Assembly (NCBI GenBank): GCA_027451445.1 | Contig: DAIDJG010000102.1 | Span: 1-35,373 of the forward strand | Direction of reading: 5' to 3' | DNA length: 35,373 nucleotides | Origin: Singulisphaera sp. | Lineage (GTDB): Bacteria > Planctomycetota > Planctomycetia > Isosphaerales > Isosphaeraceae | Made by a program: the position numbers and the translations under genes | Shown here: positions 28,262 to 32,359 of the stretch, in pieces | Layout of the letters: each line of letters starts with the position of its first letter | How positions within the stretch are numbered: the stretch's first letter is position 1 | The notes under the pieces: model-generated | Told to the model about the DNA's origin: nothing | Databases searched by the model: none | The model's input: only the letters and a program-made list of their open reading frames with translations

Positions 28262-29176
28262 ATGAACAGTAGCAGTTACAATCTGACCCACCTGAAGGTA
28301 CTCGAAGCCGAGAGCATCCACATCATTCGCGAGGTCGCCGCCGAGTTCGAGCGGCCGGTGATGCTCTATTCGATCGGCAAGGACTCGGCCGTCATGCTCC
28401 GGCTGGCGCAGAAGGCGTTCCACCCCGGCCGGCTGCCGTTCCCACTGCTGCACATCGACACGACCTGGAAGTTCCGGGCGATGATCGAGTTCCGCGATCG
28501 GTACTGTCGCGAGCAGGGCCTCGACTTGAAGGTCTGGGTCAACCCGGAGGGGCGAGCCCAAAACATCAACCCGTTCGACCACGGCTCGAAAAAACACACC
28601 GACATCATGAAAACCGCGGCGCTGAAGCAAGCGCTGAACCACTACCAGTTCGACGCCGCATTCGGTGGCGCCCGCCGCGACGAGGAAAAGAGCCGGGCCA
28701 AGGAGCGCGTCTATAGCTTTCGCGATCGCCTGCACCAGTGGGACCCGAAGAACCAGCGTCCGGAGCTCTGGAACCTGTACAACTGCAAGGTCAACAAGGG
28801 CGAGAGCATCCGCGCCTTCCCATTGAGCAACTGGACCGAGCTCGACGTCTGGCAGTACATCCACCTGGAAAACATCCCGATCGTGCCGCTCTACTTCGCC
28901 GACGTCCGGCCCGTCGTCGAGCGCGATGGCACGCTGATCATGGTGGACGACGAGCGGATGCCCTTGCGGCCCGGCGAGGAGCCCATGATGAAGCGAGTCC
29001 GGTTCCGCACGCTGGGCTGCTACCCGCTCACCGGCGCGATCGAAAGCGATGCCACAACCCTGCCGGAAATCATCGAGGAAATGCTACTGGCGAGGAACTC
29101 CGAACGGCAGGGCCGAGTGATCGACCACGACGAGACGGGGTCGATGGAGCAAAAGAAGCGCGAGGGGTACTTCTGA
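28262..29176 (+). CDS. cysD: Sulfate adenylyltransferase subunit 2
   Basis: This 304-residue protein is full-length CysD, the N-type ATP pyrophosphatase subunit that makes APS from sulfate and ATP. It carries the PP-loop [14 protein letters not shown] (about 37-50) and continues with [53 protein letters not shown] and [14 protein letters not shown], all characteristic of CysD. It acts in the cytosol as a heterodimer with the GTPase CysN, encoded here as the fused CysNC at 30425. Normally cysD and cysN are adjacent or overlapping; here they are 1.25 kb apart, separated by a repeat element and two unrelated genes. GGAGGA lies just before the ATG. Confidence 0.97.
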
Positions 29177-29269
29177 GAACATCGGGCTTTCCCGCCTGGC
29201 ACGCGGGTCGTCCGAGCGGAAAGTCTGTTACAATGGGGACAGGTCATCGGGGAGGATTTAGCGATACTA

Positions 29270-29445
29270 GAGTCTGTCCCGGAAGCGAAGCGGAGCCGGA
29301 AAAGGGGGACTGGCTCCGAGTCTTCGAGGTGCCTGTCCCCCTTTTCCGGCGGAGCGAGAGGCGTGGAAAAGGGGACAGGCACCGTCCGAACACGTCCGGA
29401 GCCAGTCCCCATTTCCACGCCTCTCGCACTATTGGGACAGACTCT
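29270..29445. repeat. REP/MITE-like palindromic element, copy 2 (long form, two inverted units)
   Basis: This 176-base element is bounded by the perfect 12-bp inverted repeat AGAGTCTGTCCC (29270-29281) and GGGACAGACTCT (29434-29445). Unit 1 is the hairpin GAAAAGGGGGAC (29300-29311) with GTCCCCCTTTTC (29336-29347). Unit 2 has arms 29355-29377 and 29405-29427, complementary at 22 of 23 positions. Unit 2 repeats the inner sequences of unit 1 in inverted order (GGGGACAGGCACC, CGGAGCCAGTCCCC), so two alternative foldings are possible. No coding capacity; 25 bases separate it from the next gene. Confidence 0.88.
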
Positions 29446-29470: not shown

Positions 29471-29752
29471 ATGAAATTCATTAAAAATGAATATATCGAT
29501 ATGGCGTTGCGAACCCTCGACGCTGATGAACGGCAGAAGGTTTTGTCGTGGTTCGACCACCTCGCGAACTGGGAGAACGACGAACACGTCCGCAAGATGG
29601 CGAAGGCCATGCCATATCAAAACACATTTTTCATTGATACACCTGATGATATGAGAATTTTCTTTACGTTGGATAATACAGCAAGGGAGATCGTCGTCCT
29701 GGATCTGGCCAAGCCTTCCAGGTTCGAAGCCGTTGGGGCGGCATCGGAGTGA
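29471..29752 (+). CDS. Small RelE/ParE-like protein (putative toxin or accessory of the DUF4263 gene)
   Basis: This 93-residue protein has two N-terminal helices (about 5-48, including ALRTLDADERQKVLSWFDHL) followed by beta strands FFIDTPDDMRIFFTL and EIVVLDLAKPSRF. This is the order and spacing of RelE/ParE toxin-fold proteins, in which the last strand carries an Ile-x-Val-Leu-Asp pattern. Resemblance is structural in pattern, not a clear family match, and catalytic residues cannot be assigned. No antitoxin gene precedes it. The ATG at 29471 has AGGGG about five bases upstream; longer forms would start within the repeat element. The first 40 bases and the stretch around 29615-29680 are markedly A+T-rich compared with the flanking cys genes, suggesting transfer. 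The DUF4263 gene starts six bases after its stop. Confidence 0.6.
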   Translation: MKFIKNEYIDMALRTLDADERQKVLSWFDHLANWENDEHVRKMAKAMPYQNTFFIDTPDDMRIFFTLDNTAREIVVLDLAKPSRFEAVGAASE

Positions 29753-29758
29753 TCGGCC

Positions 29759-30388
29759 GTGGCCCAGCAATTTGCCAGCGTCAACTTCGATCCCAGGCAA
29801 TGTCGCATCGAGATCGATGAGTTAGGAAGCATGCTCGGATCCAAAACCGAGTTGTCGGAAAAACTCGACATTCAACCGTTCTTCAAGAGTCGAGTACAGG
29901 TTTCCGCATTTATCGGTTCGTTCATGCGGAGCATTGGCCCGGCGACGCAAATCTGTTTTGAGTACAACTTCTTCGGTGACTTCGCCGCCGACCTGGTCGT
30001 CGGAGACAAGGCGTACCGCCAGTTCTGTGTCATCGAGTTCGAGGACGGGAAGCTGCAGAGCATCTTCAAACCATCACGGATCGGGAAAACCCGGCGATGG
30101 AGCGCTCGTCTCGAGCATGGTTTCTCGCAGATCATCGACTGGTACACGATGCTCGACGATCTGAAGAAGACCGAAAGATTCAAGAGAGATTTTGGTGACG
30201 GCCACATCCGGTTCTCCTCAATGCTGATCATCGGCCGAGATGCGGGTTTGTTAGACTCACATGACCGGTTTCGGCTCGATTGGAGGTCGGACAAGGTGAG
30301 TGTCGATACCAACAATGTGATCTGCGTAACGTTTGATGGACTCCACCGTCACATGGATCACCAACTGCGGCTAAATACGGGCTACTGA
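29759..30388 (+). CDS. Shedu-type DUF4263 protein (SduA C-terminal domain-like, putative nuclease)
   Basis: This 209-residue protein matches the DUF4263 domain of Shedu anti-phage protein SduA, a PD-(D/E)xK-type nuclease fold. Recognisable segments are FFKSRVQVSAFIGSF, FEYNFFGDFAADLVVGD (Asp78 as candidate metal ligand), CVIEFEDGK (Glu93 and Glu95), and RWSARLEHGFSQIIDWYTML with Gln124. After these come SMLIIGRDAGL and VICVTFDGL. Typical Shedu proteins carry an additional N-terminal domain; here only about 40 residues precede the core, so it is a short form. The E-x-K lysine appears replaced by Glu (E-F-E). It starts at a GTG six bases after the small upstream gene, with GGAGT as ribosome binding site, so the two are probably co-translated. 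cysNC follows after 36 bases. Family call good; defence role inferred. Confidence 0.82.
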   Translation: MAQQFASVNFDPRQCRIEIDELGSMLGSKTELSEKLDIQPFFKSRVQVSAFIGSFMRSIGPATQICFEYNFFGDFAADLVVGDKAYRQFCVIEFEDGKLQSIFKPSRIGKTRRWSARLEHGFSQIIDWYTMLDDLKKTERFKRDFGDGHIRFSSMLIIGRDAGLLDSHDRFRLDWRSDKVSVDTNNVICVTFDGLHRHMDHQLRLNTGY

Positions 30389-30424: not shown

Positions 30425-32359
30425 ATGCAAACCGTTGATCTGAGTCAAGAAGACATCCACACCTACCTCGCCCGCCACCAGAAGAAGGAGCTGCTCCGCT
30501 TCCTCACTTGCGGCAGCGTCGACGACGGCAAGAGCACGCTCATCGGCCGGCTCTTGCACGATACCAAGATGATCTATGAGGACCAGCTTGCCGCCGTCAA
30601 ACGCGACAGCGAGAAGGTCGGTACCACGGGCGCAGGCGAAATCGACCTCGCGTTGCTGACCGACGGTCTGAAGGCCGAGCGCGAGCAAGGGATCACGATC
30701 GACGTCGCCTATCGCTACTTCTCGACCGACCGCCGCAAGTTCATCATTGCCGACACGCCCGGCCACGAGCAGTACACTCGCAACATGGCCACCGGCGCAT
30801 CGACGTGCCAACTGGCCATCATCCTCATCGACGCCCGCCACGGCGTCATGACCCAGACGCGCCGGCATTCGTTCATCGTGTCGCTCCTGGGCATCCGCCA
30901 CGTCGTCGTCGCCATCAACAAGATGGACCTCGTCGACTATTCGCGCGACGTGTTCGAGCAGATCAAGGACGACTACACCGGCTTCGTCGCCAAGCTTGCC
31001 CTGCGCGACATCACGTTCATTCCGATGTCGGCACTGAAGGGCGATAACGTCGCGTCCCGGAGCGAAACGATGCCGTGGTACTCCGGCCCAGCGCTGCTGG
31101 AACACCTGGAGACGGTCCACATCGCCAGCGACCGCAACCTCACCGACCTGCGATTCCCGGTGCAGTACGTCATTCGCCCGAACCTCGATTTCCGCGGCTT
31201 CGCCGGCACGGTGGCGTCCGGCATCCTCCGCAAGGGCGACGAGGTCATGGTGCTACCGTCGGGGAAGCGCAGCCGGGTGAAGTCGATCGTCACGTACGAG
31301 GGCGAGCTGGACGAAGCGTTCGCGCCCCAGGCGGTGACGGTGACCCTCACCGACGAGGTGGACGTCAGCCGAGGCGACATGCTGGTATTGCCGGAAAATC
31401 CGCCGCACGTCAGCAGCGAGATCGAGGCGATGGTCGTCTGGATGGCCGAGCAGCCGCTCGTTCCCGGACGAGCCTACACGCTGAAGCAAACGACACGACA
31501 GGTGACGGCCGAGGTCGCCGCGTTCCGCTACGGCGTCGATGTCAACACCCTGGAACACCGGGCCATCGCAAGGCTGGGTCTGAACGAGGTTGGCCACGTC
31601 CAGCTCAGCCTCACCCAACCCCTGGCGTGCGACCCGTATCGCACCAACTCCGCGACCGGAGCCTTCATTCTCATCGACCGCCTCACGAACAACACGGTGG
31701 GCGCGGGAATGATCGTGGACGCTGGCAGCACTCGGGGGACGGCCGACATCTGGGCGGCCGAGCCCGCGGTGCGCCTCAAGCTGCGCGAGAGCCTCATCGC
31801 GCCATCCGAGCGTGCGCAGCGCTTCGGTCAGACCCCGGTGACGGTGTTACTGGTCGGCCTGACCGGCAGCGGCAAGAGCCGGATCGCGTACGGACTCGAG
31901 CGCCGGCTGTGGGACGAGGGCCGTGCGGTGACGGTGTTGTACGGCCAGAACATGCGGCACGGTTTGAACCGTGACCTGGGGTTCACCGCCGACGATCGCT
32001 CGGAGAACCTGCGGCGCTCGGCCGAGGTGGCGAAATTGATGAACGATGCCGGAATCATCACCATCGCTGCGTTCGTGGCACCGCACGAGGCGGTCCGCGA
32101 GAAGGCGAAGCAATTGATCGGCCAGGACCGCGTGCTGGAGGTGTACTGCACCGCGCCCATGGACGTGATGCGAGCGCGCGACCAGAGCGGCGCGTACCGC
32201 TTGGCCGACGAGGGCAAGATCGCGCAGATGCCGGGTGTGACCGCCGCGTTCGAGGAGCCCAAGGCTCCGGACCTGGTGCTGCAGACGGATCGGGTGAGCG
32301 TTGACGAGAGCGTCAGCCAAATCGTCGAGCTAATGAAGTCGCGGGGTTATCTGCGCTAG
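30425..32359 (+). CDS. cysNC: Bifunctional sulfate adenylyltransferase subunit 1 / adenylylsulfate kinase
   Basis: This 644-residue fusion makes the GTPase subunit of ATP sulfurylase and an APS kinase in one chain. The CysN half (about 1-440) shows the GTPase motifs [28 protein letters not shown] and NKMDLVDY, then two beta-barrel domains. The CysC half (about 465-644) has the Walker A motif GLTGSGKS (near residue 480) and [10 protein letters not shown], and the lid-type segment [21 protein letters not shown]. The APS-kinase LDGDN motif reads LYGQN here (about residue 505), discussed as a finding. CysN works with CysD (28262-29176), and the kinase passes APS to PAPS. The gene starts 36 bases after the DUF4263 gene, so in the present layout it may depend on transcription through the inserted genes. 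Confidence 0.95.

What the first reader, a model, noticed from the sequence alone, without database searches (positions are those of the whole stretch)
29471..30388. Two-gene toxin-like/Shedu-like module inserted in the sulfate activation operon
cysD and cysNC are normally adjacent. Here they are split by a small RelE/ParE-like gene and a short DUF4263 (SduA-domain) gene, spaced by six bases and probably co-translated. Seen directly: the gene order, the tight spacing, the A+T-richer first gene, and the palindromic element just upstream. Known: DUF4263 is the core of the Shedu anti-phage system, where SduA normally acts as one larger protein. Inference: this is a compact two-component variant in which the small protein is a partner, inhibitor or second effector. 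Riding on the transcript of a housekeeping operon could ensure its expression.
Basis: partly seen in the sequence, partly recalled or inferred. Interest (0 to 1): 0.78.

Follow-up and report, generated by a model that had tools for sequence, protein, structure and literature searches.

The report
RelE-fold partner with nuclease-only Shedu
Two small adjacent genes in a planctomycete genome form a widespread, mobile, almost inseparable pair: a stripped-down version of the Shedu anti-phage DNA-cutting enzyme and a partner shaped like a RelE toxin; the partner probably does in a second protein the control job that other Shedu enzymes do with a built-in domain, but this has not been tested.

Summary
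cysD and cysNC are split by a 93-aa gene (29471-29752) and, six bases on, a 209-aa SduA_C/DUF4263 gene (29759-30388). The pair is low in G+C and was inserted in this genome only; five family relatives have cysD and cysNC touching. The cys location is therefore incidental.

The pair itself is real and recurrent. Two more copies lie elsewhere in this genome. Of 55 short-SduA loci from about ten phyla, 48 carry a recognisable partner gene directly upstream, five more a diverged one, and two are broken. It also occurs on plasmids and temperate Vibrio phages. In 24 carrier genomes, 30 of the 31 best partner hits touch an SduA gene.

The partner has a RelE/ParE fold (Z about 11) but lacks the usual RelE end motif and a RelB-like antitoxin. 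SduA matches only the nuclease half of solved Shedu structures; its active site reads E..D..E-x-E where other SduA proteins have E-x-K.

Best reading: a two-gene Shedu variant in which the RelE-fold protein replaces the missing N-terminal control domain. Defence activity, physical interaction and direction of control are inferred. The key paper on Shedu diversity (Gu 2025) could not be read, so prior description is possible.

The parts
29471..29752 (+). Partner gene: 93-aa protein of RelE/ParE (BECR) fold, with no RelB-like antitoxin gene and without the usual RelE C-terminal motif
   Evidence: Family profile hits archaeal RelE 1wmi E 1.7e-5 and YoeB 7.5e-4; AF2 pLDDT 84; VIA Z 11.4 to RelE; directly upstream of short SduA in homologous loci
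29759..30388 (+). Short SduA gene: 209 aa, nuclease domain only, PD-(D/E)XK fold with E68, D78, E93-x-E95, Q124
   Evidence: PF14082 E 3.8e-22; PADLOC PDLC00379 SduA E 8.4e-67 over the whole length; VIA Z 13.9 to the B. cereus Shedu nuclease domain, residues 183-379; active-site residues invariant in 42/42
29753..29758 (+). Six-base spacer between the two genes; suggests translational coupling (median gap 3 nt in 45 homologous pairs, 14 of them a 4-base overlap)
29269..29445 (.). About 177-bp MITE-like inverted repeat between cysD and the partner; not part of the system
   Evidence: At least 40 near-full copies in the genome; terminal inverted repeats GAGTCTGTCCC/GGGACAGACTC with TNA-type flanks in other copies
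28262..29176 (+). cysD, host gene upstream of the insertion
   Evidence: PAPS_reduct E 7e-55
30425..32359 (+). cysNC, host gene downstream of the insertion
   Evidence: GTP_EFTU and APS_kinase; touches cysD in five family relatives

Best explanation
A mobile two-gene Shedu variant. SduA here is only the nuclease core. The separate RelE-fold protein, made just before it from the same message, is its control subunit: it stands in for the N-terminal sensor/regulatory half of one-chain Shedu, most likely binding SduA, holding it inactive or directing it, and releasing or guiding it when foreign (probably phage) DNA is met. Shown: the near-obligate pairing, the co-divergence, the folds, the missing N-terminal half, and an intact but altered (E-x-E) active-site set. 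Inferred: DNA cleavage, direct binding, control of SduA by the partner, and phage defence.
For: Pairing: 48 of 55 short-SduA loci have a partner hit directly upstream on the same strand and none elsewhere on the contigs (6 of the 48 were seeds of the profile); five more have a diverged small ORF there; two loci are frame-broken. In 24 genomes, 30 of the 31 best partner hits adjoin SduA; the weaker hits examined are ordinary relBE toxins. Plasmids and a Vibrio phage: the partner is present in all six inspected, one of them broken. Gap median 3 nt, 14 of 45 a 4-base overlap; distance matrices of partner and SduA correlate r = 0.83, permutation maximum 0.22. SduA aligns only to the nuclease half of BcShedu (183-379) and EcSduA (202-408), Z 13.8-13.9, so the roughly 200-residue N-terminal half is missing. 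In one-chain Shedu the nuclease is held back by its N-terminal part (PMC12904381; nuclease core with diverse N-terminal domains, PMC12137116). The partner itself gains N-terminal DNA-type domains in some lineages: REase_AHJR-like E 7.5e-24 in Nostocales, a weak Replic_Relax match in planctomycetes, as expected of a module that carries recognition parts. Phage and plasmid accessory positions support defence or exclusion: in Vibrio phage PQ189353 the pair sits between replication and lysis genes beside a gene labelled GajB.
Against: AF2 of the read-through partner-SduA chain gave pTM 0.70, no confident interface. No natural single-chain fusion was seen. The neighbourhood scan with PADLOC was not decisive. 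The catalytic lysine that VcSduA needs (K557, PMC12137116) is Glu here; activity with E-x-E is plausible (BamHI precedent, from memory) but untested. Co-divergence is partly explained by shared host ancestry. No phage test exists for this subfamily that I could find.
Confidence: 0.5

Rival explanations
1. Toxin-antitoxin-like arrangement: SduA is a nuclease dangerous to its own cell and the RelE-fold protein is a plain inhibitor (immunity protein). The cassette persists as an addiction module rather than as phage defence.
For: Two small coupled genes, mobile, patchy, several copies per genome. One-chain Shedu expressed in foreign hosts can be toxic (PMC12904381). The partner is always made first.
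Against: Selective addition of DNA-type domains to the partner is odd for a plain inhibitor. A RelE fold serving as an antitoxin would be unusual (general knowledge). One orphan partner with no SduA was seen, which fits either view.
Confidence: 0.22
2. Two effectors: the RelE-fold protein is a real ribosome- or gyrase-targeting toxin, triggered together with the SduA nuclease in an abortive response.
For: RelE fold with the R61-type arginine conserved in 41 of 48. RelE homologues occur in other multi-gene defence operons such as ptuXYZ (PMC11980606).
Against: The C-terminal HR..VY motif matched 0 of 48. By eye, E. coli RelE K52, K54, R81 and Y87 have no counterpart in the window protein. It is acidic (pI 5.0) and has no RelB-like antitoxin gene upstream.
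Confidence: 0.13
3. Not defence: a selfish or housekeeping DNA-processing pair (homing, plasmid competition, transposon-associated), with the Shedu label coming only from shared nuclease ancestry.
For: The E-x-E active site differs from one-chain Shedu. Neighbourhoods in chromosomes are mixed and the defence enrichment is not decisive.
Against: Position in phage and phage-plasmid accessory slots, in one phage next to another defence-type gene. PADLOC SduA models match all 42 family members.
Confidence: 0.12

Closest known systems
Shedu / SduA (DUF4263, PF14082; EcSduA 8ps4, BcShedu 8ti8/8ti9)
   Same: Same nuclease fold (Z 12.3-13.9); Pfam SduA_C above its cut-off; the Q-containing helix and the GR region align
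   Different: The whole protein is the nuclease core, with no N-terminal half. E-x-E replaces E-x-K. A separate RelE-fold gene lies upstream.
VcSduA, type I-D Shedu (GHKL ATPase N-terminus; PMC12137116)
   Same: DUF4263 nuclease controlled by another domain
   Different: The control domain is a GHKL ATPase in the same chain; K557 is essential there, where the short family has Glu
RelE/ParE toxins (PF05016, YoeB, archaeal RelE 1wmi)
   Same: Fold, with the conserved arginine on the second-last strand
   Different: No adjacent RelB/Phd-type antitoxin, no HR..VY end, paired with a nuclease gene downstream
ptuXYZ operon (PMC11980606)
   Same: A RelE-superfamily protein inside a multi-gene nuclease-type defence operon
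   Different: Three genes with a PtuA-like ATPase and a DUF262 protein; the paper does not mention Shedu or DUF4263
Hachiman HamAB (PMC12278908)
   Same: A nuclease subunit held in check by a separate partner protein
   Different: The partner is a helicase; the proteins are not related by any test made here

Membership tests
Shedu (SduA) | SduA_C/DUF4263 nuclease domain above the curated cut-off | tested here: met
   PF14082 79.6 bits against cut-off 27; PADLOC PDLC00379 E 8.4e-67
Shedu (SduA) | Shedu nuclease fold | tested here: met
   Top structural matches are 8ti9, 8ps4, 8ps5 and 8ti8, Z 12.3-13.9
Shedu (SduA) | N-terminal regulatory domain in the same chain (the type I design) | tested here: not met
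   The 209-aa protein aligns only to BcShedu 183-379 / EcSduA 202-408; the preceding ORF is a separate gene
Shedu (SduA) | PD-(D/E)XK active site with lysine (E-x-K) | tested here: not met
   E-x-E in 42/42 of the family and in the plasmid and phage members; E-I/L/F-K in the six longer SduA-type proteins read by eye
Shedu (SduA) | Anti-phage activity by DNA cleavage | not testable with these tools
   Needs bench work
RelE/ParE superfamily | RelE (BECR) fold | tested here: met
   Profile hit to 1wmi E 1.7e-5; VIA Z 11.4 to 3g5o and 1wmi; ParE_toxin matched weakly by 12/48 members
RelE-type type II toxin-antitoxin | Adjacent RelB/Phd-type antitoxin gene | tested here: not met
   In the window the upstream neighbours are the repeat element and cysD and the downstream one is SduA; contrast ordinary relBE in the same genomes
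RelE-type type II toxin-antitoxin | Catalytic residues of E. coli RelE (K52, K54, R61, R81, Y87) | tested here: inconclusive
   The R61-type Arg is conserved 41/48 and the motif HR..VY is found in 0/48. The correspondence was read by eye and the control set was ParE-rich (3/27).
RelE-type type II toxin-antitoxin | Toxicity by mRNA cleavage or gyrase inhibition | not testable with these tools
   Needs bench work

The most novel reading that the evidence does not exclude
An undescribed, widely spread two-protein branch of Shedu: a BamHI-like E-x-E nuclease core controlled in trans by a RelE-fold protein that has given up toxicity to become a sensor or scaffold, and that itself takes on extra DNA-recognition domains.
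Probability: 0.35. Interest if true: 0.78.

Novelty: new variant of a known kind. Interest (0 to 1): 0.6.

Why it matters
Shedu is described as a one-protein system whose many built-in N-terminal domains sense the invader. A split version with a removable regulator would allow the nuclease core and its control to be studied apart, and would show a toxin fold turned into a regulator. Defence-finding tools that list only SduA overlook half of the system: PADLOC has no model that matches the partner, and PLSDB's gene table lacks it on the Ri plasmid pRi1724. Bench tests of SduA alone from this branch could therefore be misleading.

Tried and rejected
(1) A special link to sulfate metabolism: rejected. 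The junction is closed in five family relatives; in four class-level relatives it holds gaps of about 118-722 nt, one with a 151-aa ORF and one with a transposase-like ORF, none with the pair. (2) The palindrome as a regulatory element of the pair: rejected; it is a genome-wide repeat. No terminator-like site was called in it. (3) AF2 of the partner-TGA-SduA read-through chain (TGA read as W; 12 paired rows, the rest unpaired) to look for an interface: pTM 0.70, inconclusive. (4) Net charge as a sign of ribosome binding: family median -0.5 against +1.0 in a ParE-rich control, p = 0.3, uninformative. (5) PADLOC neighbours: 143 models matched by 123 neighbouring proteins against 42 by 96 control proteins. 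Many are redundant models of a few proteins and some are housekeeping look-alikes, so this is not decisive. (6) IMG/VR scan for short SduA: no confirmed relative; a scan with the partner alignment was not possible. (7) PDB sequence search with the SduA profile: nothing at E <= 1; only fold comparison finds Shedu. (8) Literature: Loeff 2025 and Gu 2025 are not held. Searches for a two-gene or RelE-linked Shedu found nothing relevant.

Full report
What is there. The window holds cysD (28262-29176), a repeat element, a 93-aa gene (29471-29752), a six-base spacer, a 209-aa gene (29759-30388) and cysNC (30425-32359). The two small genes have 48% and 53% G+C against 62% and 65% for cysD and cysNC, and third-position G+C of 61% and 69% against 88% and 87%, which suggests recent arrival. 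The palindromic element (about 29269-29445) folds very stably, but it occurs at least 40 times almost complete in the same genome, with terminal inverted repeats and TNA-type flanks in other copies. It is a MITE-like repeat and not part of the system.

The location is an accident. In five relatives of the same family cysD and cysNC touch (0-6 nt apart). In four class-level relatives the gap is about 118 to 722 nt and holds other things, for example a 151-aa ORF or a transposase-like ORF, never the pair. The same genome carries two more copies of both genes on other contigs (C180, C614), in the same order, without cys genes near them.

The second gene. It is a full-length match to PADLOC's SduA model PDLC00379 (E 8.4e-67) and matches Pfam SduA_C. 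The predicted structure (pLDDT about 96 over most of this part) matches B. cereus Shedu residues 183-379 and E. coli SduA residues 202-408 at Z 13.8-13.9, the nuclease half only. Across 42 relatives E34, E68, D78, E93-F94-E95, Q124 and D127 do not vary. The six longer SduA-type proteins I read by eye have E-x-K at the E93-x-E95 place, and K557A kills VcSduA (PMC12137116). The family is thus an E-x-E variant. BamHI is a working E-x-E nuclease of the same fold class (from memory), so activity is plausible but untested. More distant short SduA proteins, and those on plasmids and in the phage, also have E-x-E.

The first gene. Alone it has no meaningful Pfam match. A profile of 48 homologues finds archaeal RelE 1wmi (E 1.7e-5), YoeB and RelE3 in the PDB; twelve members match ParE_toxin weakly; the AF2 model (pLDDT 84) matches RelE toxins at Z up to 11.4 over about 80 residues. 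It is probably not an ordinary toxin: there is no RelB/Phd-type gene beside it, the usual HR..VY end is absent (0 of 48), and in the window protein only the R61-type arginine of E. coli RelE seems kept (read by eye).

The pairing. A scan of about 85,000 species genomes with the short SduA alignment gave 55 loci, mostly Cyanobacteria and Planctomycetota, also Kapaibacteria, Bacteroidota, Bacillota, Gemmatimonadota, Desulfobacterota, Thermomicrobiales and Methylobacterium. The profile of ten seed partners hits 48 of them directly upstream, same strand, and nothing else on those contigs (6 of the 48 were seeds). Five of the other seven have a diverged small ORF in the same place (L038, L082-L085). 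Two loci, L081 and L087, are frame-broken. Gaps run from -14 to 42 nt with median 3, fourteen of 45 being a 4-base overlap. The reverse test in 24 carrier genomes: of the 31 best partner hits (E <= 5.4e-9) 30 adjoin SduA. The exception is an orphan in a Spirulina genome (L177), and the weaker hits I read are ordinary antitoxin-toxin pairs. Partner and SduA distances correlate (r = 0.83, permutation maximum 0.22), though shared host ancestry contributes. A more distant SduA (L091) also has a small coupled upstream ORF.

Mobility and defence. Thirteen plasmids (8 predicted conjugative) and two Vibrio phages carry the short SduA. Five plasmid loci and one phage locus were inspected and all have the partner, unannotated in pRi1724 and broken in the E. 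hormaechei plasmid. In Vibrio phage PQ189353 the depositors labelled the two genes 'RelE-like' and 'Shedu__SduA'; the next gene is labelled GajB, and the set lies between replication and lysis genes. In Enterobacter phage-plasmids it lies among SSB, head and lysis genes. This fits cargo defence or exclusion. Chromosomal neighbourhoods gave no decisive enrichment.

How it most likely works (inference). One-chain Shedu holds its nuclease back with an N-terminal part that senses DNA ends (EcSduA, reviewed in PMC12904381), and Shedu as a family has a common nuclease with very diverse N-terminal domains (PMC12137116, citing Gu 2025). Here that half is missing and an upstream, translation-coupled RelE-fold protein is present instead. 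In some lineages that protein has itself gained an N-terminal REase_AHJR-like or a weakly matched Replic_Relax domain. The simplest reading is that regulation has been moved to a second chain. A plain inhibitor (addiction module) and a two-effector abortive system remain open. My one computational test of contact, the read-through chain, was inconclusive (pTM 0.70).

Novelty. SduA of this type is already filed under Shedu in PADLOC, and one phage record names both genes, but no library used here describes the pair as a unit (partner: no PADLOC model) and no held paper does. The most relevant paper could not be read. Verdict: a new variant of a known kind, firm on anatomy and co-occurrence, moderate on mechanism.

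Noticed in passing
window 29269-29445: About 177-bp MITE-like element, terminal inverted repeats GAGTCTGTCCC/GGGACAGACTC, usually flanked by TNA in a CTNAG-like target (IS5-type style by memory); at least 40 near-complete copies in the genome.
   Followed up: partly
L100 1059-1514 and L101 826-1365 (reverse-complement coordinates): The cysD-cysNC junction of two class-level relatives holds other insertions, a 151-aa ORF and a transposase-like ORF, so this junction may be a repeated insertion point.
   Followed up: partly
L036 4784-5986, L047, L050, L052, L057, L068, L086: Nostocales partners of about 400 aa: N-terminal REase_AHJR-like nuclease domain (Pfam-tested in L036 and L047), a middle region, then the RelE-like domain, overlapping SduA by 4 bases in most. 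This would put two nucleases in one two-gene system.
   Followed up: partly
L150 4696-7934 (Vibrio phage PQ189353): RelE-like, SduA and a gene labelled GajB in a row in a temperate phage: a possible compact defence cargo slot.
   Followed up: partly
L177 689-1830 (minus strand): Orphan partner gene without SduA, beside what looks by eye like a DUF433-DUF5615-type pair in a Spirulina genome.
   Followed up: no
G457 (contigs C874, C90, C419, C1136, C63): One planctomycete genome carries five diverged copies of the partner-SduA pair, the fifth with only part of SduA in the matching frame.
   Followed up: no
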